DNA from: Hexactinellida sp. DTS-2022
Taxonomy: Eukaryota; Porifera; Hexactinellida
Length of the DNA: 64,000 nucleotides
NCBI GenBank assembly: GCA_028753945.1
Contig: JAPNXP010000007.1
Span: forward strand, 2,294,001-2,358,000
Reading direction: 5' to 3'
Under the pieces are notes generated by a model, which worked only from the letters and a program-made list of their open reading frames with translations, had not been told where the DNA came from and made no database searches. Both the position numbers and the translations under genes were made by a program. Shown here piece after piece: positions 3,193 to 62,266 of this stretch (positions are counted from its first letter, which is position 1; the number at the start of each line of letters is the position of its first letter).

Positions 3193-5973
3193 TTATTGGC
3201 TAAGAATACAGTTTGCTGCAATTGATGTGATTTTACGGAGTATATTCCATCCTTGTTGATTACAAGATCCGCACGTATTTCTACAGCTGACACATTGTGT
3301 ATCCTCTATGTATGTAATAGCGAGTAGGATTAATATCGTTCTTGAAGGTCCTGCCAAAAACTGCTGCATCAAGCTAGAATCACCTTCTACTGTTATATAG
3401 ATCTTCAAAACAATAATAATAGCATCTATCACAATATGTGATGGCCATTTGAGGGCACCTCGGTCGATAAGCTGAATGAATTTGTAAGTATCCTTTTCAT
3501 TCACAATTTCTAGCTCTTTATCCTGTGTCAGCAAGGACGAACAAGCATTGGACTTACTAGATAGTTTGAAATACGTATGGACTGCATAACCTCCTACAAA
3601 GGCAATTGTTTGAAGCAGTGAAGTTTCCAGTGTTAGGGTCGGAAAAGATTCCATTGCTAGGAGATATGTGTCTAAATTTAATGAATTTGATGGTTCATCA
3701 GGTGGTAAGGAAAAGGATTCGATTATACCTTTTAGATTCACGTAATCCGATTCGGTTTTTTTGAGAAACACTTCAGTATGCTTGATTGTTTAATACGCCG
3801 TTCGCTTTCAAGTATTTGAGTAAAAGTGATATGATATTGTGCACCTGACATCATACGATACAACCCAAAGTGATGTTCAATCGGGTTATTCTGTAATCGT
3901 GATGTAAGTACATAATCAAAACCAGTTATGAGTGAGATGATTTATGATTTCGATCAGCTCTAGACATGAATGGGAAAAGCTAGTAAATGTCTGAGGACTT
4001 AATTTTCCATATTTACGCTCACGAGATCTCCAACGTGCAAGCTAGTTGATAATGAGCCTGAGGAAATTTAAACGTTCATGATTATAGTGAAGAGGTCTTG
4101 AAAGCTCATCATTAAGTCGTATGTGTTATGTGTCGTATTTATATTGAATATCTTCCAAACTTTTATAATAATGTCTAGAAATTCGCATGTCTTGCGGGAT
4201 TCAAAGTCTGTTCGCTTAGAGTTGTAAATTGATAGAGCTGTAAGTGTTGATGTATCAAATATTTTCAAAGCCGGTTAACATTTTGTCTTTCTAAAATAGT
4301 GGGCCAACAAGCCTTTGCTGTTAAGTGATGTGCCTGTTCGAGGACCGAAGTTTGCTAATTTTTGTAAAGTAATCGAACATCTTGGAATTGAGCAATATTT
4401 ACTTTGTGTGTGTCGTAAAAGTAGGAAAATTAACGCATTGGGTAGGCAAATGCACGCTAGTAATCTTTTAAATTGAGCCAATAGTTTCTAATTGATTTAA
4501 TTATGTCACGAAGTCGAAGATTAAAAAGAGTTTTCTTTCTGGATCATTGGGGTGAATCACGGTAGGAGATAAAGTCTTGTTATCTGTCGAAAATAATTTG
4601 AAATAAAGGCAGTGATTTCAATACTGGGCCACTATACTATAGTAGTCGGCACAGTAAAACTAACGTTAAGTGGATAGTTGTCAGTGCAGATGACTTGCAC
4701 TGTCAGACCACAACATTCTACATCACAAATAACAGATTTGACAACTGCAAATATCTCGTCAGCAGAGTTAGATGAAGATGGAATTAGGCGGACAATTTGC
4801 GACCACTTTCTGGATAAGATTGATACCATTATATCGAAAACAGTTTTAATTGGTTCATTGGAATATCCGATTATTCTTCCTCCCTTATAAGCAACGGTGG
4901 ACTTGACATGTATCTCGTCCATTTGTAAAATTATATTGCGGTCTCTGAAGTCGCTTGCTTAAGAAATGCTAGAAAATCGCTTTCTAAACCAAAGTTTGAA
5001 TAGAGTTTCTGTAGGGTTCTTGGATGCGGTAATGATATACATCCTAGAGATTGTAAATATATGTAGCACGCTGGAGATATGAGATGAGCTTTTAATGCCA
5101 TAACTTGGGTAATAACATTATATCTCTTCCTCTTCTTATCGACAAGAAAATTATTTAATTGGCATTCAATAAATTGAAGTTGAGATAATTTATGAGAATT
5201 TTCGGGATCATCGTCATTAATTAAGTCTGGAAATTGCGTGTATAATGCACTAATAAATAGAGTAATTTGATTTGAAGCTTGTTTAATGTGATATTCAAAT
5301 GAGTTCAGGTTACTAGATATGGTGTCTGGTGTACGTACTTCTGAATTTCGTTCAAAAATGTTTCTACTTGTCGGGTATCTGATAAGAAGTTGAGTGCAAG
5401 AGGAACAGCGATATTATCACGAAATGCCAAGACTCTTAGGTCTGATAGATGTGAATAGTATCGAGCACAGAATGCCAAACGATCCAATTATCAGGTAAGT
5501 TAAGCGATGATATCTTCGAAATTAGCTTTTGGAAATCGTCAACTCTAAACCATAAATCCTCCCGTTTTTGTTGCTTGAGGCTTAGTTGGAGAGCTTGTGC
5601 AAATTGTTGTCCTTCTTTTGAGTCTCGTGTAAGCCGAGTGGGTCTGTCCAGAGACGCTGTCGAAAGATATGGTGGGCATCCTGGTAAGAGAGAAGGCACT
5701 GCATTTGGACGAAGTTTTGGCCTTTCACGCAACTTTTCGGTGACACTTCCGTCAGCTTGCAAAATTTTGTCTACACTGACAATATATATCCTCGGGGTGA
5801 AAGTGAAGTTGGCAAACATATGCGTGTTTAAGATTTTCAATGTCCACTCGATGAAGTGCTCTTAGCCATTGATGACGTAGTTCTGGTGGGTCAGTTGGAA
5901 GTTTAAAAACTGGTGTGTATGGCTCACCACGGTAATTACCACGACTTCCAGGTGCGGAGCACTGGCTAGCATC
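3193..5973 (-). pseudogene. THAP9/P-element-type transposase, frameshifted
   Basis: Read on the minus strand, the pieces follow the order of THAP9/P transposases. An N-terminal THAP finger lies near 5970-5800, with a CSAPG start and an HFHPED-type Cys-His end. A linker follows with an AVPSLLPGCP-like motif (5700s). The LPHPRTLQKLYS motif is near 5010, the catalytic-region motif MDEIHVKSTVAYKGG at 4922-4880, and an FLIFDFV segment near 4530. Then come ARALKIF-like sequence (near 4260), SRLQNNPIEHHFG (near 3880) and a C-terminal RGALKWPS segment in a 192-codon open frame, 3193-3771. Frames change repeatedly (for example at an A7 run near 3760), and a 57 bp insertion splits the gene at 4603-4659. 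The second THAP cysteine reads Ser (CSAPGS), so one zinc ligand is lost. It is inactive as it stands. The family bound the element ends and cut DNA in the nucleus. Confidence 0.85.
4603..4659. repeat. 57 bp palindromic short repeat, copy 1
   Basis: The unit runs from ATAAAGGCAGTGATTTCAAT to GTCGGCACAGTAAAA. It recurs almost unchanged at 39405-39464 and, more diverged, near 52560-52605 and 52786-52840. The 39.4 kb copy has the perfect 18 bp palindrome ACTATACTATAGTATAGT; this copy lacks two bases of it. Here it interrupts the P-like transposase reading frame, which shows that it inserted as a unit. No protein or known promoter was recognised. Confidence 0.65.
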
Positions 5974-10017: not shown

Positions 10018-10435
10018 TGGACCATGGGTCAACATTGTTGACCCATGACCCATCTGACCCATGACCCATTGACCCATTGACCCATTGACCCATTGACCCA
10101 TTGACCCATTGAACCATGACCAATTGACCCATTGAACCATGACCCATCAAGTAACGCTTTGACCCATCGTGTTACCCATTGACCTTTAAAATAGCTATTT
10201 TTTAATACTAAATATTATGTAACACAATGCTACTTACAATATATGTATGATGCTTGTCAATCAATTAATTTTGGTAGACTTCTAATACCAAAGGAATACC
10301 CTGTAATGTTACTGGGTTAATCTACTTCGTACTATAACTGGAGGAACATCGAAATTCCAAATGGGTCATGGGTCGTGGATGACAGAGACGAGACCCATGA
10401 CCCATCTGACCCATGACCCATCGACCCATGGTCCA
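10018..10435. mobile_element. 418 bp insertion carrying a GACCCATT minisatellite
   Basis: The insert starts TGGACCATGGGTC and ends GACCCATGGTCCA, an exact 13 bp inverted end pair. It lies within the reading frame of the surrounding gene. Beside the left end, about ten GACCCATT-type 8 bp units run from 10040 to 10185; a few GACCCAT words recur before the right end. I see no target duplication. Open frames on both strands over this array are simple translations of the repeat. Confidence 0.6.
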
Positions 10436-18529: not shown

Positions 18530-21329
18530 GGCCAAATTAGGGATGACCGGGATCACAATTTAGCCGGGACCGGGATAGGTGCCGGGATTTTGAGATTTTA
18601 GCCGGGACCGGGACCGGAACCGGGATTTTATAAGGTCCTTAAGTAGTTAATTTCCAGCTATAGCTGTTTTTTCTTGAAGAATCCAGATATTATAACCTTT
18701 TAAGTTTTTACAATGTTTTTTATCATCATCTAATTGGTTTACGGAAAGACCGATATTGAGAATTTGTGGTTCATTCTAACACTTAGCAGTGGTATCTCTC
18801 TCTACGTAATATTGTATTATTGTATAACATAATGTTGTCTACTCAAGTACTTTCTAAAACTAAAACTAGTAAATACACAAAACTAAACTGTCCAGTCAGC
18901 ACTATGTAAATTTTCAATACTGTCTTCTAAGCCTGTAATAACGTGATCCACTTCACTTACTGGTTTCAGTAGCTCAGTATTGTAGCCAATTGCGCGCAAA
19001 TTGAATTTAAGAAACAGAAGCCTTTCAATATTTTGTGGGAGCAACCTGATACGTTCATTGCTGCTGACATTCTTTGCAACTTTGACTCACGTTCACTTGC
19101 GCAAGATCCAATGGGCGCGCACAAATATTTCTTTGCAAGTTGTGTCAGCTGAGGCCATTGTATAGCCCTTACCTTCCAGTAGGCCAATGGATCATCATCC
19201 CTAGCTATTCGCTTTTCAGTAAAATAAGCACTCACTTGCGCCTCTAGTTCGCGGGCTTCATCAGATTCTTCATCAGTATCTTCAGAAGAACTGTCTAGAA
19301 CAGACTCCCACCCATTTCTCTAAGCCGAATGTGCTGCTCTAATTTCACTGCTGACCTGGCTTTCTTGTGATGCCGGAATGGTGGTGATAGTATTCAATTT
19401 AGTAATCAGTAATTCTCTAGCAAATGTCACATTTTCTCGTTGGATAAACCCACGAGATTTGTACCGAGTGTCCAGGAGTGTTGCGATTGCAAACAACTCA
19501 TTTGTTTCAATATTTCCAAAGTGTTCACGGCAGTCACCACCTTGAAAATACCTGTGCATTTGGATTAAAAGCTGCGTTTTCATTGTCCCTAAACCTCTGC
19601 TATCGATTAATCCCAATTCGTGAATGATATACTTCACCGATGGAATCGCCTCCGAGATACATGCGCGCTCGCGTTCACCATCATTCGTGACATCTGCAAA
19701 CGGCTTCAATAGACAAATCACCTTCGGAATTAAGTCCCAATAATTTGATGTCAGCATTTGATCCAACTTCAAGTCCATCTCGGGGTCATCTTCACATCTA
19801 CGAATGACGCGCTTCTGTTGTTCTAGTCTCACAAGCATGTCATAGTAGCTGCTCCATCGTGTTTTCTCACCCAATATCAAATTGTTGTGCGGCATCTGCA
19901 TTCCATCTTCACCTTCCAAAGCTGTTTGATGCTTAGAAAGAATGTGCATTGCTTTCGGACTACGCTTGAAATGAGACACTTGTTTGTTAGCCCGGATCAT
20001 CATTAAGTTCACACCACTTTGTTCAAAATTTGAATGTGTAACAACCAACTGTAGAGTATGCAGGAAGCATCCTGCACTTGGCCATTTATTTAGAATCATT
20101 GCATTGACCATGTTTAAGGCATTGTCACGCAAAACTGCATGCAACTTATGTTTCAGGTTCCATTCTGCCATTATTTGACTTAGCACATATGCAATGTTTT
20201 GAGCTGTGTGTGATTCATCAAATGAGAAACACTTTAAAACCACCATTTTGGGCTGCCAATTATCGTCGATGAAGTGCACTGTTGTGCTGATGAAGCTGTG
20301 CACACTTTGAGATGACCAGATGTCTGTAGTTATGGAGCAAGATTTGAAGCTATCACGTAGGAGTATTTGCACATGTTGATATACTCGCCTATACATATTT
20401 GGGATGATATTAAGACGCAATTGTTTCTCACTTGGGATGTCAAATTTTGGGTTAAGTTTCTTAATCATCACCTTGAAACGATCGTCTTCCACAACAGTAT
20501 ATGGCAAGACTGCATTACAAATCCACTCAGCTAGACGAAAGGTGAGTGACTGCTGTTCTTGATGATATTGTGGCCACCTTCTATGCAGTTCAAAAGTTTC
20601 CTGGATACTCAATTGTTTTGGAATGCTAACGCTTGTGCTTGTGGTCAATTTGTAGATCTCCTTATTATCCTCTTTCTCAGTCAGTTTTTGCCTCTTTTCA
20701 TCTTCATGACCCTTCTTTACTTCATCTGCTTTTTTGAACTCATCAGGGTGGTGCGACTTCAAATGACTCCATAATCCCTTTGTCGAGTAGGCATTTTGTC
20801 GGAGCCCGAAACAGCACGAGGAACAACTCGAGATTTTGAAGAACACTTCTCCGCAATGCACCATGCAGTTGAATTATCCGACTCGTCAACATCGAAGTAT
20901 GTCCACACACCAGATTGCTTCCTTTTTAACGCTGATGTTGCCATAAAATACTAAAAAAATACGAAACCAAATTCGTATCCGTATCTATATATACACACAA
21001 AATAATTATATGAGGTTGAACTACAACGAATATGATTATTCTCGCTCTCGCAATATGTTTTGATGAAAACGAAAAGTTCTGATACTGGTAACTGAGCTCC
21101 ATATAGAGATTCATTATTAAATAACAATTTATACCGTTATAGTAAGCATTCAAATGTGATATTTAATGTATCAATTAAGAAGTATATTTACTATAATGAG
21201 GTATAAAATATCCCGGCAAAATCCCGGGAAATTATAACGATCCCGGCTGAACCGGGACCGGGACTAAATAGGCTGATTTTGACGGGACCGGGATTTTGCC
21301 GGGAATCCCGGTCGAACCCTAGGCCAAAT
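18530..21329 (-). mobile_element. BED-finger hAT transposon, nearly complete
   Basis: The element spans 18538-21321 and is flanked by the 8 bp duplication GGCCAAAT (18530-18537 and 21322-21329). The ends are TAGGGATGACCGGGAT on the left and, reverse-complemented on the right, TAGGGTTCGACCGGGATT. Many GGGACCGGGAT words lie within about 100 bp of each end, as expected for subterminal transposase-binding sites. The transposase is on the minus strand. This is the least decayed autonomous-type element in the window. Confidence 0.9.
18966..20944 (-). pseudogene. hAT transposase (zinc finger BED type), few lesions
   Basis: The start is an ATG at 20944 opening MATSALKRKQSGVWTYF. A BED-type finger follows (Cys pair then GLWSHLKSHH). 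One frameshift near 20800 moves into a 514-codon open frame (19320-20864) containing FTTDIWSS-like sequence (SITTDIWSSQSVHSF), VLRDNALNMVNA, RWSSYYDMLVRL and CLLKPFADVT, all standard hAT catalytic-core blocks. A single in-frame TAG near 19322 separates it from the acidic linker and the C-terminal dimerisation region DDDPLAYWK...LAKKYLCAPIGSCASERES. A last frameshift lies near 19070. The expected length, about 660 residues, is normal for ZBED-like hAT transposases. It would bind the element ends and excise in the nucleus; now disabled by one stop and two frameshifts. Confidence 0.88.
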
Positions 21330-29876: not shown

Positions 29877-30138
29877 CCCAACAGTGGCTTAATTTGGAAT
29901 TTGGTAAGGAATAGGTATCTGGGTTAATTTTACCGTATATAATGTATTATTTGGTATAGGTTATCGAACATTAGGAATCGATTGAGATAATTAGACCTCC
30001 TCTAAGTCTTGCGGTTTTGAATTATGACGTAATCATAATTTTCCCAAATTTAGAAAGCAAGAAAGAATTTCTCAAATTTTTCTATTTTTTAGCATAAATT
30101 TATTTAACAATAAGAGAATGTACTAGACTATCTATAGA

Positions 30139-32849
30139 TTACTCTATTGTGTTGTTTGAGTCGTATTTTCTACAACACTTGGCAGACCTTCTAGTGTGAC
30201 CCTCTTCGCCGCATCTCTCACACCTCAATTTTGAGCGAAATCCTAATAAAACTGGATTACTTTCACATCCTAGCCTAACAAAGATGTCAATAATGTTATC
30301 TTCGATGGATGTCTTTCTTGCTAGATTTTCTTCGTATTTTGTTATTAATTTATTTCAAGCCTCTTAACCTTCTTCAGAGAAACATTTAAAACCATACCCA
30401 GAATTAACTTCCCTTAACAATTCTTCGGAGTGTGCCAATAATTTGTGCAATGTGGGAGTGATGTTTGCCCATGGAAATGATTGAAGGATTAAGAGATAGG
30501 TACCTTTACAAAGTTTCCAAGTTCATTGGTATTGATCTTTCTACCATTGTTGAATATTCTCAGAATTGCAGATAATTGTGTAGAAGTTTTGAGAGTGCTT
30601 CTTTGTGCTGTTGCTCAACTAATAAAGATACACACTCAATGAACTGGGACTCGCTAGAAAAACCTTTTCGTGCAACGATACCAGTTGACGTAGTTCCACC
30701 TGAAGGATCCGGTAGGTATATTTTTAATCCGATCCTTTCAAGTACCACGTTGAGCACAAAGTGCATCGATTGGTGGATAGCTGGGGATGTAGGCGCCCAT
30801 CATAATTTACCACTGTTCAAATGGTATACTAGTAAACAAACCACCTGAAAATACATGTACGAGAGTGTAGAGGAGAATCCGGTGTGATATTGATGGTTGA
30901 AGCAGGTTCGTGAGTTAAATTGAATCGATCATTGGATGGAAGAGAGAAAAATGATTCGATATCTTCCAGTTCTCCAAACATTTCATCGCATCAGAAATAT
31001 ACCTGTTAATGGGGAATCCTTGCAGTATTAACTGTGGATCCTTAAGCTCTTTGTGAGTTGATGTGCATAGCTGACAGCTTGCTCCCCCTGCCCCTGAAAG
31101 TATTGCAGCAATCTTCCAATCGAACAATGATCTAGTAAAATCCACAGCTACATGACCCATTCCAGGTATCTCAAATCCTTCATTCTTCAATTTGTCAGTG
31201 TCAGGGTTTATTATGTCAGTCATAAATTGTGTGCAATTTGACTCATTTTCTTTAGCAGCGCACAAAAAGATTGGCCGTTGACAAAATGGAGAGTTAGGGG
31301 TAGTATTTTTCGTTGCCACTTGAAAACTTGATGGAAAATGGATTTGAAGCAAAAGAATATCAATGATTTGGTGGAAGTATTTGTATTTTGTTGGTTGTTA
31401 ATAGCATGACTTCCTGATCCATCTAAACCATCTACTATTTGATAACTAAGCGGGAAATCCTCTATTAATGGACGAGACTAGTAAATGGATGCTCTACATA
31501 TTGGGCGTAGGATACACATTCACCAATTGATTCTGAAACATTAGGATATAGCTTTATTGAAGAACGTAAAAAGAAGCTTCTGATAAGCAGGAAATTGAAT
31601 ATAACTAGATAGTAGATGTTGACGCAGCTTATTATATTTCCTCTTGCCTATTTCCAGCATATCAAGAAGGGACAATGACTTATCAACATCAACATCTTTC
31701 TTGACTACTTTACCAAAATCCCCAGGAAAATTGTCTGTACAATTAACTTAGATCAGTGGTTCCCCACCTGGGGTGCATGAACCCCTTGGGGGTGCACGGG
31801 ACACGTCTCTGGGATGCACGGGACAAGGAGTGGAATGATTATTGTTCATTTTAAATTAAGTTTTTAATATATAGTTATAATCTACAAGTTATATCTCTCG
31901 ACTTTACTGATTTATTACCATTGTGTTCTATAAGTTACACGACGCTTTTCAAAGAGGGATTGGTCCGTACTGGTCCATTTACCACAACCTACCATTTGGC
32001 ATTCGCCCCCCCCCCACCAATATTGGTGCACCTCATAATTTTATCCTCCCTAAATAAGCAAAATATTGTTGCCATAAATTGTTAGTAATACTCATTGATA
32101 TTTGAAAATCCTCTTCACCCCAGAAGAATTTTCTCGCTCTCTGCGCTCGCTCGTCTATAAATCCATGTATACTTAAATTAACCTTGTGATATAATTACAT
32201 ACTGACGCTTTTCATCCTAATGAGACCTTATGATGTTCACCCCTCATCCTGTTTTTATAATCGATGCCCTTGTAAATAGAATCCTCAGACCTAGGTATGT
32301 CCGGGGTTGCACCACCAAATTTTCGGGTATCAGAGGGTTCACGAGTTAAAAAAGGTTGGAAACCACTGACTTAGATACCTTAGCTACTTGTCTGGAATCA
32401 TACTCATTAGAAACTAACTATAGAGCGAGTGCAGCAATCTTGATTTCTGAAATATTTTCAAGTTCAGCGAGTACTCTGCTGGAGTCTAACACATTTGATA
32501 GACGTGATCGCTGTTGTTTAAATAAAAGGTTGCCAATACTCTTCCTATGATGCACTGAAGAATTTTGTATATCCGCATCGAAAGATAAACGCCTCTTCTT
32601 CAAATCTGGCTCAAGAAATACAGCAGAGTTCCACCATTCTCCACCCAGTGAGTCAATGGATTTTTTAGACTCTCTGATTGTATCCCGAACCCTAGATAGG
32701 ATTATGTGTATACTATCTCTCTTAGCAAGGTCTAATTAAAAATATTCCTCCAATTTGCCAATCGTTTGAGAAATATTGTTGGAATTTTCTTTCAGGATTC
32801 TTGCAAAATCAAGCCTGGTTTGGGGAATAGTAATTAAGCTTTCAGCCAT
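30139..32849 (-). pseudogene. RAG1/Transib-like recombinase, broken
   Basis: It starts at ATG 32849 (MAESLITIPQTRLDFARIL) and ends at TAA 30139, about 695 codons once the nested MITE is discounted. Blocks on the minus strand: KYNKLRQHLLSSYIQFPAYQ (31650s); VDGLDGSGSH (31404-31435), matching the DG motif that holds the first catalytic Asp of RAG1; RPIFLCAAKENESN and GAGGASCQLCTSTHKEL with its C-x2-C (31290-31050), matching the RAG1 zinc-binding middle; GLKIYLPDPSGG and STGIVARK (30725-30670); HKLLAHSEELLREVNSGYG then FSEEG (30450-30375), matching the RAG1 helix with the catalytic Glu; and a C-terminal CERCGEEGHTRRSAKC knuckle (30222-30175). Stops interrupt SEEG*EA*NK and other sites, with several frameshifts. 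I could not place the second catalytic Asp: the expected position reads LHSR. Confidence 0.82.
31746..32376. mobile_element. 615 bp hAT MITE inserted in the RAG1-like gene
   Basis: The element, 31754-32368, starts CAGTGGTTCCCCACCTGGGG and ends AGGTTGGAAACCACTG. The exact 8 bp duplication ACTTAGAT lies at 31746-31753 and 32369-32376. CAGTGGTTC ends are common among animal hAT MITEs. The interior is non-coding with a C-run near 32010. Confidence 0.9.
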
Positions 32850-32879
32850 AGAGGCGGAAATAAATACGTAATTCGTTGA

Positions 32880-33565
32880 TATAATTACTGAAATCTTCCT
32901 TGTTCTTTATATTCTTACATACACGTGTATATATTATAACTTGTAGATATAAACTTCATGCCATTTGAAAATCCGAAATGTATATTGTTACATAACAACA
33001 AATAACAATCATTGGAATTTCCTTATCAACATAAATTGACAATGGAATTCAATAACATTTTAGAGGTTGCGCACTGTTTCGGAAGCTAAGATTTCCATAA
33101 TTAATTCTTACAACATTAATCTACAACCTGTCAAAATTTCTCGTTGATCTCTGATGTACTTTTTTTTCCGCATACCTGAGATTTTAATTAAAAAATGTTG
33201 TACATTTTTACATAGAGCTTTTACCCCCTGTTAAAATATAAATGCATCAGTGTAACAGTAAATCAGTATAGAAATATATATTTAGCATACTCGTTTTGTA
33301 TATATTTGAAGACAAAATAACCACGATTCCTTACACATTGTAATTCAGAGTGAAATGAAATATGTTGTATCTTAGAATTCTCAAAACCACAAATGGAACA
33401 ATAATTTGATACAATTCATAAGTATATTTATAGGCGTAGTTTGTGTTCAAATCAATTGAAATTTCATATGATCGTTAGTATACTATCTAAATTTAATTTA
33501 ATACCATTTAGAAGCATTTTAATAACCACAAATCTTTTCCTATTTCTACGTGTTAAGCCACTGTG
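32880..33565. other. Non-coding left arm of the RAG1-like transposon
   Basis: About 700 bp lie between the recombinase start and the CACAGTG terminus. They are A+T-rich and hold no open frame of note. The region would have carried the recombinase promoter, but I see no distinctive motif. Confidence 0.35.
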
Positions 33566-33570
33566 CCCAA

Positions 33571-47210: not shown

Positions 47211-47657
47211 GGGCCTTATTCACTAAACTTCTTAAACTTAAACTTAAACTTTAAACTCAAACTTAAGCTTAAACTTAAACTTAAACTTAAACTCAAAACT
47301 TAATCTTAAACTTAAACTCAAACTTAAACTTATACTTAAACTTAACTTAAACTTAAACTTAACTTGAACTTGGCAACTAGTATAGTACTAAATATATAAA
47401 CTACGTCTATCAACATATAATAAACAACTATAAATTCTTTCTTTTATGACACTCGCTTTTCTACTTGATCTCGATCTTACACAAAGTTTGTCACGACAGA
47501 GAGTATTTCGTGATAGACTCAACCCAATTGATATTTATAATGATACAGAATTTATCGCGCGTTACAGAGATACTAAATATATGTTCGTTCAGCTGCAAGA
47601 AAAAGTTGAAACGTTCCTTCATCGATCAACTATTCGATCACATTCCATTCCAGCTCC

Positions 47658-49521
47658 CACACAATCAGTGGCGTAGCCAGCTCTAGACTTGTGGTGGTGC
47701 GTCGGTGGTGCATGGGCTCATCTCGGTGGTGCATCGGTGGTGTATGGGATCCTCGCGGTGGTGCGTCGGTGGTAATGGGCTCATCTCGGTGGTGCACGGG
47801 GTTGTCTTTTCTACCCTCCCCGCCCCTATATCCCAAACAATCCTTGGCAATTCACAAAGAAAAAATTAATTTGCGAACGAAGTATAATCGGACCGGTGAT
47901 AGGCGAATTAACTACGAAGAAAAGTCGAGGGGATTTTCCAAAAGTTCATGTACAGTCCACAAAGATTATATCCGAGATGTATTCCATTTCAAACATAGTG
48001 TATACAAGTATCGAAAATGATTGGGAATGCCGTGCAGTTCTTAGATATTGAAGTATCTCCTTTTAAAATTTTCGAATTTCTTATCCGATCGAAGGTGCTA
48101 TCACCTTACTCTGCAGGGTAAAAATGCCAAATTGGGAGGACTAAAGTTTCAGATCTCGGGCATACGTTTTCGAGTTTGGGAATTTCTCCAGATCAATCTA
48201 ACGTAGAATGAATCGATTATTTAATGGCCTCATCCTCAAGTCAAAAAGAAGTAAAACAATTTCTTGGGATAAGCAAGATATTATCGTCGAAGATTTTGCT
48301 TCTATCGCAAATCCATTAATTTCCTTGCTGAGGACCAGGGACGTTGCCAGGATATTTCACCTAGGGGGGGCATAGAAATTGCCAGGGGGGAAAACATTAT
48401 ATTGGTGTTAGATTTAGCAGTTGACGTTACCAAAAACTAGGCGATAAAGAAGAAGCTTTCTAGTTTAATGTCCTGCAAAGTACGAAAGGTAGCCTACAAA
48501 AATCAACACATTAACAAGAATTTTGCACTTCCGCAAAAACTACAGCTTAACTACTAGCTATAATGACAGTAAAAGTCAATTTTGACAGGTAACAGGTCTA
48601 AAGTAAAAGCTATATTGGGTTTGTAAACAGTTGATTAGAAGTTAGAACCAAAGTGGCCAAAAAAACTAGGAATATCCTACAGACGCATCTAGATTGCCAA
48701 CAGTCCATTCCTGTCAACTGACAGGGATTTCAACCATTTTGAATGTTCTGTCCAGGCGTACAGGGATGTAATAAATTGGTATATGGATTACTAGTTTGGA
48801 TAAATTATAGATTGTTTCTCGAATAATACCTAAATGCCTAACCCTAAATGTAGCATTATGTTTTGTGTAAATTAATACCCTATTCAAGCGTACATGGATT
48901 CTCTGTACAAAATATATATTTCTATATTATCTGCGTTCATAAGTGATTAAATTGATCTATGTCAAACTTAATAAGAATAAATAACATTATAGTATGTATA
49001 TCTTGACATACATAATAAAATGTTTTGGTTAGTTTAATACGTTTAGTCTAAGTGTAGATTCACATTTTAGACGAGCGAGCGATGCGAGGGAGAAAAATAT
49101 TTGAGGTGTCTAGGCATCTTGACCAATCTACAGGGGAAAATCGGAGCTTCGTATAGGGATGTGACTCAAATGGATTGGAAAGTGTGAACTCATTAAATTG
49201 AATTCAATAGCATCAATGAATCGTAGGAATAAAATAGTTCAATATATTTTACCAGGGGGGGCATGCCCCCCTATGTCCCCCCGTGGCGACGTCCCTGCTG
49301 AGGACAGATATGAATTTTAACTCATGTTATTTTTAAGTGTTCATTTCTATCAAGGTTATTTTTAAGTGATAATTTCAATCACTACAAGTGATGATTTGGG
49401 AATTAATACTTACTACTTAAGGTGTATATAAAAATGCCCACCACCTCAGGTGGTGCGCAAAAACATTTTGGTGGTGCGCCGCACCACCGCGCACCACCCT
49501 GGCTACGCCACTGCACACAAT
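47658..49521. mobile_element. hAT element nested in the Harbinger transposase
   Basis: The element, 47666-49513, has perfect inverted ends CAGTGGCGTAGCCAG and the exact 8 bp duplication CACACAAT (47658-47665 and 49514-49521). Near both ends GGTGGTGCG minisatellite words occur; open frames there are translated repeat. No hAT transposase is recognisable, so it is non-autonomous. A further hAT lies at 48336-49297. Confidence 0.92.
48328..49305. mobile_element. Innermost hAT element, level three of the nest
   Basis: The element, 48336-49297, starts CAGGGACGTTGCCAGGATAT and ends GTGGCGACGTCCCTG. The exact 8 bp duplication CTGAGGAC is at 48328-48335 and 49298-49305. G7 and C6 runs lie next to the ends. 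No transposase was recognised. Confidence 0.92.
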
Positions 49522-50442
49522 TCGCTGTCACATTACAATTTCTCGCCACCGGTTCATTTCAAACGGTTGTCGCAACTTCACATGGGATATCCCAGCCTTC
49601 TGTTTCCCGATGTATCCGTACAGTGACAGATGCAGTATGTTTTTTTGCCCGAGATTATATAGTTTTCCCAATCAAATAGATAGATTACGAATACAGCAAA
49701 AATTCTTGGAATTAAATGGCTTTCCACTTGTACTCGGATGTATTGACGGCACACATGTACCTATTTTAGCACCTCCCTGTAACGAAGATCTATTTGTCAA
49801 CAGGAAAAACTTTCACTCCATCAATGTCCAAGCAATATGCGATACCGATTTAAAATTTATTGATATTGTCGCCAAATGGCCTGGGTACACTCATGATGCC
49901 TTTATTTGGAGGAAGTCTGGTATCAATCGAAGGATTGCTAGTGGAGATATACCCACTGTCAAAGGATGGTTCCTCGGCGATAGTGGGTATCCACTACGGC
50001 CTAACCTCCTTACACCAATAATTTCTCCAATCACGCCAGGGGAGAGGCGCTATAATAGAGCTTTTCTGAAATCTCGAAAAACTATTGAATGCGCTTTTGG
50101 GGTTTGGAAGAGTAGATGGCGATCTATGGACAAAACTGGAGGGACTCTCTGTTACAAACCGGAGAGAGTTTGTCGATTAGTAGTAGCTACAATGGTGCTG
50201 CATAATTTTTGCATCGATCATAGGCTACAATGGCAGATAGATACAATCGAGCAAGAAGATCCTATTGTAGAAGATACTATTGGAGAAGATAGTTATCCGG
50301 GTGATACATCAACAACTAATGGAAGTATTGTTCGCCAGTCAGTCATTACAGATTATTTTGATTAATTATTAAGTTTTATATAGTATAAACCTACAATAAT
50401 TATTGATATACATTCTGTATAGTATAAACATTAAGTTATAAA

Positions 50443-51249
50443 TTAATCATTAGTTTGAAAATGATGAGGGTGCGGAGGGTGCGGAGGAACGAAGGAGTGA
50501 AAATAGTCGTGAGGATTAGGGGGAAGTGGTAGTGTGGAAGGAGCAGTTTGAAAAGGTGGTATAGTAGGCTGTAAAGTAGGCTGTATTTGGCTAAAATTGT
50601 TGGAGAGCATCCTATTTTGATTAGATACTACAGCTTCTAAGAGATCCACCACTCGATCCAACTTGCCATCTATACTTTTCAATACAACCAGCTTCTCCTG
50701 TTCACTTTGCAAAATAACTTTCTTTAACGAGTGAGTTAAAGCAACATCATTTTCGAAGAATTTTCTTTTTCGACGTGGTTTGATGTCTCTATCTGTTGCA
50801 CTGCCGATGGACATCTCAGATTCACTCAATGGACTGATTGGCGATAAAAGGGAAAGATCAATGCCTGATGCCACACCTTCGAAAAGTTCCTTCCCCTTAA
50901 TACTTTTGATCTTAAGCTCCATTTCAGATAAATTTCCTTCAGAGGACCCACCTGCTGTTTTACGGATGGAGGACAACTTGTCGCTTATAATCGACTTGTG
51001 TTTTGCCAAGATGTTAGACCACTTCTTAGATACATCATCTTTGGTCCTAACTGTTCCATGAGCCTGTGTAAGCCTTTGGGCGATATCTTCCCAGATGTCA
51101 ACTTTCTCTTCACTGGTGAGAGAAGAACTTAGAGCACCGAAGAGATTTGGCTTATTCTCTTGAACTAAGTCAATTAGTAATGCTATCTCCTCGGCGGAAA
51201 ATTCTTGGCACGAATTTTCAAAGACATCGGAAGTGACAGAATGCAACAA
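50443..51249 (-). CDS. Harbinger Myb/SANT-like DNA-binding protein
   Basis: An open frame of 268 codons without internal stops. FSAEEIALLIDLVQENKPNL starts a Myb/SANT-like trihelix (about residues 17-100) with KVDIWEDIAQRL and KDDVSKKWSNIL. A basic stretch PRRKRKFFEND (near residue 160) could be a nuclear signal. A predicted coiled segment with EQEKLVVLKSIDGKLDRVVD follows, and the C-terminus is rich in Pro, Phe and His. In PIF/Harbinger elements this partner carries the transposase into the nucleus and to DNA. No in-frame ATG is found at the 5' end (TAA precedes TTG at 51249), so the start was lost or lies on another exon. Stop at 50443. Confidence 0.85.
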   Translation of the reverse strand: MLHSVTSDVFENSCQEFSAEEIALLIDLVQENKPNLFGALSSSLTSEEKVDIWEDIAQRLTQAHGTVRTKDDVSKKWSNILAKHKSIISDKLSSIRKTAGGSSEGNLSEMELKIKSIKGKELFEGVASGIDLSLLSPISPLSESEMSIGSATDRDIKPRRKRKFFENDVALTHSLKKVILQSEQEKLVVLKSIDGKLDRVVDLLEAVVSNQNRMLSNNFSQIQPTLQPTIPPFQTAPSTLPLPPNPHDYFHSFVPPHPPHPHHFQTND

Positions 51250-61178: not shown

Positions 61179-61928
61179 TTAGGTGTAGATCTGTATTCGA
61201 TCTGTTATAATTGAGCAGCAAATAGGGCATGAATTCCCAATTTGGTCACTACAGCATTGACAAAATTTAGCATGTCTACAAGGGTAGAATAATATTGTAG
61301 ACACTCTCGTTTGTAAACAAACACAACAAACAGCCTGATTGGTTTCCTCATCGTCACTTTCTTCGGTCTCTGACAAGGTCTCCTCACTTTGTTGAGGTAA
61401 ATTTATATCCGGCTCATTTGAATCCTCCAATGCAAATAGATACTGAAGAGGTGTGTATTCCCCATCTTCAAGCTTCTGTTTACACTCTCTCCTTAATTTT
61501 GCGTTTCGGATGCTCTTCTTCCTTATCGGGCGAGAAATCTCTATACCATTCCTTAAGCGTTCTAAATCTATATCTGTATCGGCAATAATGTTATTCAGAA
61601 CTTGAACAAAATGCCATATTCTTGGTTGCTTCACAACAACTTCACTCTTAAGTTTTGCATGATATATTTCAGCTCCATTATTAGTGGTTTGAATGGCATT
61701 AAATATAGATAATTCGTTTGCTGGTGTCCTTCTAATCAACTGTTTTTCAATATACCTTTTAAATTTCGTAAATTTTCGATGTAAAACACATCTCAGAAAC
61801 GTTACATTGCTGTATTTCCTTATCTTTGAGTATTTAAAACCATCCGATGTTGTGCAAATGCATCCTCTCTTATGTTTGTAGATATTACAAGAATATTCCA
61901 TGAAATTGTGACAAATAACAAATGGCAA
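61179..61928 (-). CDS. Mutator-like transposase C-terminus with RING finger
   Basis: An intact 249-codon frame, ATG at 61928, stop at 61179. Residues 10-60 resemble part of a FLYWCH-type finger (NVTFLRC.LH). From about residue 75, NAIQTTNNGAEIYHAKLKS and then RIWHFVQVLNNIIADTDIDL and GIEISRPIRKKSI match the C-terminal part of a Mutator-like transposase family seen in invertebrates. Residues about 200-242 form a C3HC4 RING: CVCLQTR, PCRHAKFCQCC and CPICC. The MULE catalytic core is missing between the FLYWCH-like part and the NNGAEIYH part. The join is in frame, which suggests an internal-deletion derivative. Whether it is expressed cannot be judged. Confidence 0.72.
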   Translation of the reverse strand: MPFVICHNFMEYSCNIYKHKRGCICTTSDGFKYSKIRKYSNVTFLRCVLHRKFTKFKRYIEKQLIRRTPANELSIFNAIQTTNNGAEIYHAKLKSEVVVKQPRIWHFVQVLNNIIADTDIDLERLRNGIEISRPIRKKSIRNAKLRRECKQKLEDGEYTPLQYLFALEDSNEPDINLPQQSEETLSETEESDDEETNQAVCCVCLQTRVSTILFYPCRHAKFCQCCSDQIGNSCPICCSIITDRIQIYT

Positions 61929-62266
61929 TTTTGGTACTTATTTACAAGTATATATATTTTATACGGTTGTGTTTTGAACTTCACTTACTATAAGCAAACA
62001 ATATAATTTTTTGAACAATGGTGTGAGTTGATCAATTGCGAACCCAAAGTGAGAAACAATCAATATGATGGAAATCATAGCATATTAGAGGTTGCCAATT
62101 GATTAACAATATAGTTTATGTTGTTGATTAATTGTAAACTATGTAGTTGATCAATTGTAAACATTTGTTGATCAAATGCAAAGGTTAGTTGATCAATAGC
62201 AAACCATCGAAATTTGACCAATTGCTAAACTCATTTGTTGATCAATTGCAAGCTCCTCTTAAATTA

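What the first reader, a model, noticed from the sequence alone, without database searches (positions are those of the whole stretch)
29877..33570. Transib/RAG1-like transposon with V(D)J-heptamer-like ends
The minus strand encodes a broken RAG1-like recombinase, the right terminus begins CACAGTG, and CCCAA flanks both ends as a 5 bp duplication. The left terminus is the same after loss of one CA. Coding blocks, heptamer-like ends and duplication length all point to the same superfamily, the ancestry of the vertebrate antibody recombinase. The protein blocks are judged from family memory.
Basis: partly seen in the sequence, partly recalled or inferred. Interest (0 to 1): 0.9.

Follow-up and report, generated by a model that had tools for sequence, protein, structure and literature searches.

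The report
Dead Transib/RAG1-like jumping gene
This is the decayed remains of a cut-and-paste jumping gene from the superfamily that gave rise to the vertebrate antibody-gene recombinase; such elements are already known from many animals, although this copy keeps some protein features usually associated with the RAG side of the family.

Summary
Confirmed. Window 29877-33570 holds a degenerate Transib-superfamily (RAG1-related) DNA transposon. A 5-bp duplication (CCCAA) flanks a CACAGTGGCTTAA end on the right and the same end lacking its first CA on the left; this combination occurs once in the window and in none of 60 shuffles. The minus-strand read-through matches HzTransib (E 3.5e-9), amphioxus RAG1L (4.7e-7) and RAG1 (3.4e-5); a reversed read-through matches nothing. 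The three catalytic acids and the C-C/H-H zinc residues survive amid frameshifts and stops. No RAG2-like gene or N-terminal zinc module was found. Unlike HzTransib, this copy has about 36 extra residues where RAG1 has alpha11-alpha12, and a CCHC tail near the RAG1L motif: published marks of 'Subgroup I' Transibs, placed nearest RAG1L (PMC9435367). I could not test that by phylogeny: no eukaryote collection or host genome was available. It is a relative, not an ancestor, of RAG: a new, dead member of a known superfamily, modestly interesting for its RAG1L-like features.

The parts
29877..29881 (+). Left target-site duplication CCCAA
29882..29892 (+). Left terminal inverted repeat CAGTGGCTTAA; the first CA of the heptamer is missing
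33553..33565 (-). Right terminal inverted repeat CACAGTGGCTTAA, beginning with the V(D)J-heptamer-like CACAGTG
33566..33570 (+). Right target-site duplication CCCAA
32372..32849 (-). Probable N-terminal part of the transposase (from MAESL), 2 stops, no cysteine; ends at the nested insertion. Assigned by position and frame, not by homology
   Evidence: no PDB or Pfam match to RAG1 on its own
30139..31747 (-). Transposase core through zinc-binding domain and C-terminal tail, in seven pieces over three frames with stops
31421..31423 (-). First catalytic Asp (LDGSG), aligned with the first DDE position of RAG1/Transib
   Evidence: alignments; coordinates; identity of the catalytic residues in RAG1 recalled
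31119..31121 (-). Second catalytic Asp (LFDWK)
   Evidence: alignments; coordinates
30361..30363 (-). Third catalytic residue Glu (SEEGxEAxNK)
   Evidence: alignments; coordinates
30865..31067 (-). Stretch from the second ZnC2 cysteine to the LHS motif, about 67 codons against 31 in HzTransib; where RAG1 has alpha11-alpha12
   Evidence: crosses one frame change
30172..30222 (-). C-terminal CCHC motif C-x2-C-x3-G-H-x6-C-C, similar to the Cx2Cx3GHx4C tail (CTT*/CTT1) of RAG1L
   Evidence: alone it matches only zinc-knuckle and other small chains weakly in the PDB
31754..32368 (.). Nested 615-bp non-autonomous hAT-type element with CAGTGGTT ends
31746..31753 (+). Left 8-bp duplication ACTTAGAT of the nested element
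32369..32376 (+). Right 8-bp duplication ACTTAGAT of the nested element

Best explanation
This is one dead copy of an autonomous Transib-superfamily cut-and-paste DNA transposon in a eukaryotic genome. When intact, its single RAG1-like DDE transposase would have bound the CACAGTG ends, nicked next to CAC, formed hairpins on the flanking DNA, and inserted the excised element by a 5-bp staggered strand transfer, leaving CCCAA on both sides. Shown here: ends, 5-bp duplication, protein homology with D-D-E and zinc residues, loss of the reading frame, later hAT-type insertion. Inferred from the family: the nick-hairpin chemistry and end recognition. Within the superfamily I place it provisionally with the 'Subgroup I' Transibs (RAG1L-like zinc-binding region and CCHC tail, no RAG2 partner); confidence in that sub-placement is about 0.6.
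For: Ends and duplication at the borders of the coding region: 1 in the window against 0 in 60 shuffles for the full combination. Read-through of 459 residues: HzTransib 3.5e-9, BbRAG1L 4.7e-7, RAG1 chains 3.4e-5 to 4.8e-4; 14 of 16 listed rows are Transib, RAG1L or RAG1, the other 2 are nucleocapsid zinc knuckles at E above 1. Longer read-through (544 residues): HzTransib 1.5e-7, BbRAG1L 2.8e-7, RAG1 9e-4 to 2.1e-3; 5 of 8 listed rows are Transib/RAG. Reversed 544 residues: 0 hits. D-D-E, C-x2-C and H-K-x3-H are located. Local identities of the read-through: 89 of 350 to HzTransib, 38 of 125 to a BbRAG1L fragment, 37 of 160 to a RAG1 fragment. Without the nested insert, its extra 8 bp and the TSDs the element is about 3.06 kb with one protein. 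For the sub-placement: zinc C-to-H spacing 206.7 codons against 165 residues in HzTransib, mostly one 36-column gap in HzTransib, and the CCHC tail (zf-CCHC_6 E 6.4e-4); both features are given as Subgroup I marks in PMC9435367 (main text).
Against: No single open piece is significant alone: six pieces gave no RAG1 match in Pfam; the piece with the second Asp gave only 3 unrelated PDB rows at E 0.59-0.72; the C-terminal piece gave 18 rows at E 0.026 or weaker, none Transib or RAG1. Pfam RAG1 on the read-throughs stays under its 25-bit cut-off (15.4 bits, 18.3). The longer read-through scores lower than the shorter for HzTransib and for RAG1, and the RAG1 rows (3.4e-5 and weaker) are not among the 8 rows, where three other RAG1 chains appear. 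The left end lacks CA, so a full heptamer was not seen there. For the sub-placement: the tail has six residues between H and C where the RAG1L motif has four, and its Pfam score (20) is below the cut-off (22); the 36 extra residues cross a frame change; the best PDB match is still HzTransib; no asymmetric second end element was found above chance (593 of 2000 shuffles as good over 40 bases, 1376 of 2000 over 60).
Confidence: 0.93

Rival explanations
1. A fossil RAGL transposon (RAG1L plus RAG2L) that has lost its RAG2L gene.
For: The CCHC tail and the RAG1-length zinc-binding region resemble RAG1L; BbRAG1L scores nearly as HzTransib (2.8e-7 against 1.5e-7), and a 138-residue BbRAG1L fragment is 38 of 125 identical to the read-through.
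Against: Both ends and both duplications are present, yet only about 0.7 kb lies between the first ATG and the right end, without an ORF of 60 residues and without a Pfam match at E up to 1 in any of its 6 frames. The N-terminal 160 residues hold 0 cysteines, so the RAG1L N-terminal zinc modules are absent. The published protostome RAGL end consensus has AAA at positions 8-10 (PMC7204232, passages); here those positions read GCT.
Confidence: 0.06
2. A Subgroup II (HzTransib-like) Transib whose extra block and tail are accidents of decay or a chance zinc knuckle. (This lies inside the best explanation; it disputes the sub-placement only.)
For: HzTransib is the best match; Subgroup II holds most previously identified Transibs (PMC9435367); the tail spacing differs from the RAG1L motif; the end asymmetry test was null.
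Against: Two separate features point the other way. The extra block sits where MAFFT opens a single 36-column gap in HzTransib, and the RAG1 alignment runs through the first part of that block with only small gaps.
Confidence: 0.3
3. Not a Transib element: a hAT element or chance assembly, since hAT ends also begin CAGTG and the left end starts CAGTGG.
For: Left end begins CAGTGGCT; a hAT-type element is nested inside.
Against: The protein matches Transib/RAG1; the duplication is 5 bp, not 8; the right end begins CAC. The nested hAT-type element has its own, different 8-bp duplication.
Confidence: 0.02

Closest known systems
Transib superfamily, exemplified by HzTransib of Helicoverpa zea (PDB 6pqn series)
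   Same: Single RAG1-core-like DDE transposase, CAC end, 5-bp duplication, no RAG2; best PDB match; 89 of 350 aligned residues identical.
   Different: This copy has about 36 more residues in the zinc-binding domain and a CCHC tail; it is broken.
Subgroup I Transibs of Tao et al. 2022 (PMC9435367, main text read)
   Same: No RAG2L found, alpha11-alpha12-like block, CCHC tail like CTT1.
   Different: No Subgroup I sequence was available to align or to build a tree; tail spacing GHx6C instead of the RAG1L GHx4C; asymmetric ends not demonstrated.
RAGL transposons such as ProtoRAG (BbRAG1L, PDB 6b40)
   Same: RAG1L core match 4.7e-7, similar tail motif, 5-bp duplication, CAC end.
   Different: No RAG2L found, no N-terminal zinc modules, different bases after the heptamer than the published protostome RAGL consensus.
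Vertebrate RAG1 and V(D)J recombination signals
   Same: Catalytic core (3.4e-5) and heptamer CACAGTG on the right end.
   Different: No nonamer was recognised by eye; it is a transposon, not a host gene.

Membership tests
Transib superfamily | Transposase homologous to the RAG1 core with D-D-E | tested here: met
   and control; significant only for joined read-throughs, not for single pieces
Transib superfamily | 5-bp target-site duplication | tested here: met
   CCCAA on both sides
Transib superfamily | Ends beginning 5'-CAC and similar to the RSS heptamer | tested here: met
   Right end CACAGTG; left end lacks the first CA
[quoted passage not shown]
   No ORF of 60 residues between the first ATG and the right end, no Pfam match in its 6 frames; 0 cysteines in the N-terminal 160 residues
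Subgroup I Transib (Tao et al. 2022) | alpha11-alpha12 equivalent in the zinc-binding domain | tested here: met
   By length and alignment only: 36-column gap in HzTransib, C-to-H spacing 206.7 against 165; crosses a frame change; structure not tested
Subgroup I Transib (Tao et al. 2022) | CTT1 tail (Cx2Cx3GHx4C as worded for RAG1L in PMC7204232) | tested here: inconclusive
   C-x2-C-x3-GH-x6-CC present; last spacing differs from the motif
Subgroup I Transib (Tao et al. 2022) | Asymmetric ends with a second conserved element | tested here: inconclusive
   Best match AGGAATAGG/AGAAATAGG equalled or beaten in 593 of 2000 shuffles over 40 bases and 1376 of 2000 over 60
Subgroup I Transib (Tao et al. 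2022) | Phylogenetic position | not testable with these tools
   No Subgroup I sequence in reach; scans gave no relative
RAGL transposon | Convergent RAG2L gene (kelch, PHD) | tested here: not met
   About 0.7 kb without a 60-residue ORF and without a Pfam match at E up to 1 in 6 of 6 frames
RAGL transposon | Protostome TIR with AAA at positions 8-10 | tested here: not met
   CACAGTGGCTTAA has GCT there (consensus from PMC7204232); the host's phylum is unknown, so this consensus may not be the right yardstick

The most novel reading that the evidence does not exclude
A Transib of the RAG1L-proximal Subgroup I, with RAG1-type zinc-binding domain and CCHC tail but no RAG2 and an exact V(D)J heptamer CACAGTG at one end: a surviving fossil of the kind of element that is proposed to have acquired RAG2.
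Probability: 0.5. Interest if true: 0.5.

Novelty: new member of a known kind. Interest (0 to 1): 0.33.

Why it matters
Transib-superfamily elements are the accepted relatives and likely source of the vertebrate V(D)J recombinase. By Tao et al. 2022 (PMC9435367) most previously identified Transibs belong to Subgroup II, which has lost the RAG2-binding block and carries a different tail. A copy that keeps both the block and a RAG1L-like tail without RAG2 would add to the set that bridges Transib and RAG1L, and intact copies in the same genome would help to ask which came first. The copy itself is dead and says nothing direct about immunity in its host.

Tried and rejected
Homologous copies. The host genome is not held. 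Scans for the second-Asp piece gave 131 pattern stretches in viral contigs and 21 in genome contigs, none confirmed as a relative. The HzTransib fragment gave 2 stretches in viral contigs, none confirmed. A degenerate HK..H / E..E..NK DNA pattern gave 1 stretch in genome contigs (L001, Neobacillus novalis) and 0 in viral contigs; that pattern also does not match the window's own element, whose codons differ from it. Around the match L001 reads, by eye, as an unrelated protein; it was not searched further. Within the window no second copy of the element or of two transposase pieces was found.

RSS-like spacer or second end element: not above chance. No nonamer was recognised by eye; no scan for one was run.

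Phylogeny was not attempted: the only references in reach were HzTransib, BbRAG1L and vertebrate RAG1. No structure prediction was run: the protein is broken into short pieces and no alignment of relatives was available.

A remnant of RAG2 in the 0.7 kb before the right end was looked for and not found.

Full report
What is there. On the minus strand of window 29877-33570 lies a degenerate transposon. The left border reads CCCAA-CAGTGGCTTAA and the right border, read inward, TTGGG-CACAGTGGCTTAA. The 5-bp CCCAA therefore flanks both ends and the right end begins with CACAGTG; the left end lacks its first CA. Because repeat finder counts the last A of the left CCCAA, it reports a 12-bp perfect inverted repeat; beyond the duplication it is 11 bp.

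Is it more than chance? The inverted repeat alone is not: the window has 528 exact 12-mer inverted pairs at 2-5 kb (mean 32.9 in 60 shuffles; I take the excess to come from repeats), and 21 of these have a near-flush 5-bp direct repeat (0.65 in shuffles). One pair has CACAGTG at an end, and it is the same one that has the 5-bp repeat; shuffles gave 0 in 60. The heptamer criterion was taken from the finding, so this is not a blind test, but the pair also encloses the recombinase pieces. The 13-base end at up to 3 mismatches is not enriched (19 against 16.1).

The protein. The minus strand carries pieces in all three frames. With X at stops and frame changes, a 459-residue read-through matched HzTransib (3.5e-9), amphioxus RAG1L (4.7e-7) and RAG1 chains (3.4e-5 and weaker). 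A longer read-through with two more pieces and two pieces extended (544 residues) gave 1.5e-7, 2.8e-7 and 9e-4: HzTransib drops from 39.6 to 33.9 bits while RAG1L stays at about 33. One added piece lies in a block that HzTransib lacks, which may explain its drop, but RAG1 drops too: the RAG1 rows are not listed, where three other RAG1 chains appear. The reversed 544 residues gave 0 hits at E up to 10. Local identities are 89 of 350 to HzTransib, 38 of 125 to a BbRAG1L fragment and 37 of 160 to a RAG1 fragment. Against the assignment, single pieces are not significant alone and the Pfam RAG1 model stays below its cut-off (15.4 and 18.3 bits against 25). All three catalytic positions are kept: Asp at 31421-31423, Asp at 31119-31121, Glu at 30361-30363, together with the C-x2-C and H-K-x3-H zinc residues (which RAG1 residues are catalytic is recalled). 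The eight pieces hold 12 stop symbols, four of them the last symbol of a piece, one of these probably the natural terminator after ...NNTIE.

The nested element. At 31754-32368 a 615-bp element with CAGTGGTT ends is flanked by ACTTAGAT on both sides, the length of duplication made by hAT elements (recalled). It splits the transposase between ...RQVAKVS and VNCTDN... It should be younger than the Transib copy. Without it and its extra 8 bp the element, TSDs excluded, is about 3.06 kb.

Which kind. No RAG2-like gene was found: between the first ATG (about 32849) and the right end no ORF of 60 residues is listed, and none of the 6 frames of 32850-33552 matches a Pfam family at E up to 1. The N-terminal 160 residues contain no cysteine, so the RING and other N-terminal zinc modules of RAG1L are absent; that piece has no homology match of its own. 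Martin et al. 2020 (PMC7204232, passages) separate Transib from RAG1L by low identity and by absence of the N-terminal non-core region. Their protostome RAGL end consensus also differs from this end after the heptamer. So this is Transib rather than RAGL.

Within Transib. Tao et al. 2022 (PMC9435367, main text) split Transibs into Subgroup II, which includes most previously identified ones and lacks the alpha11-alpha12 block, and Subgroup I, which keeps that block and a RAG1L-like tail (CTT1) and lies closer to RAG1L. HzTransib I take to be Subgroup II from its lack of the block and from the order of names in their figure legend; the text does not say so outright. Here the distance from the second ZnC2 cysteine to the first ZnH2 histidine is 206.7 codons against 165 residues in HzTransib (207 in mouse RAG1 by recalled numbering), and the difference is mostly one 36-column gap in HzTransib. 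The last piece carries C-x2-C-x3-GH-x6-C-C (zf-CCHC_6 E 6.4e-4, 20 bits against a cut-off of 22), against Cx2Cx3GHx4C for RAG1L. These favour Subgroup I, but the last spacing differs, the block crosses a frame change, HzTransib remains the best PDB match, the asymmetric-end test was null, and no Subgroup I sequence was in reach for a tree.

Mechanism. From the family (nick-hairpin cleavage and 5-bp duplications: PMC7204232, passages; the rest recalled): a transposase dimer binds both ends, nicks next to CAC, makes hairpins on the flanks, and joins the freed ends across a 5-bp stagger. What is shown here is the outcome only. The present copy cannot code for an intact protein.

Host. Not identified. 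The window holds several eukaryotic-type DNA transposon genes, no tRNA or Rfam match, and no genome is held for it. I make no claim about which group of organisms it comes from.

Literature. Searches: (listings). Read: PMC9435367 main text; PMC7204232 passages; Kapitonov and Koonin 2015, PMC4411706, parts 1 and 2 of 4, which states that canonical Transib transposases have no identifiable domain besides the core; PMC8355894 and PMC11217092 passages. The 2005 Transib paper and the HzTransib structure paper are not held. None of what I saw describes this element, but I had no repeat library or host name to search by, so that absence means little.

Noticed in passing
window 31746-32376: A 615-bp hAT-type non-autonomous element with 8-bp duplication ACTTAGAT inserted in the transposase gene; a 45-base stretch of it has an 80% match at 49065-49108.
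   Followed up: partly
window 18966-20873, minus: hAT transposase in two ORFs (517 and 117 residues; Dimer_Tnp_hAT 1.2e-8 in the second; DUF659 0.0068, below cut-off, in the first).
   Followed up: no
window 49421-51249: PIF/Harbinger-like pair: DDE_Tnp_4 (4.4e-33) on plus and Myb/SANT-like (7.9e-12) on minus; the superfamily name is recalled.
   Followed up: no
window 4931-5413, minus: Weak P-element-type HTH match (PF12017, 5e-4, below its cut-off), beside other minus-strand ORFs at 3193-3789 and 5436-5861 without a significant match.
   Followed up: no
window 61179-61937, minus: 252-residue ORF ending in a RING finger (PF13920, 4e-6, at its cut-off).
   Followed up: no
window 10038-10147 and 47231-47371: Short tandem arrays (TTGACCCA; CTTAAA).
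   Followed up: no
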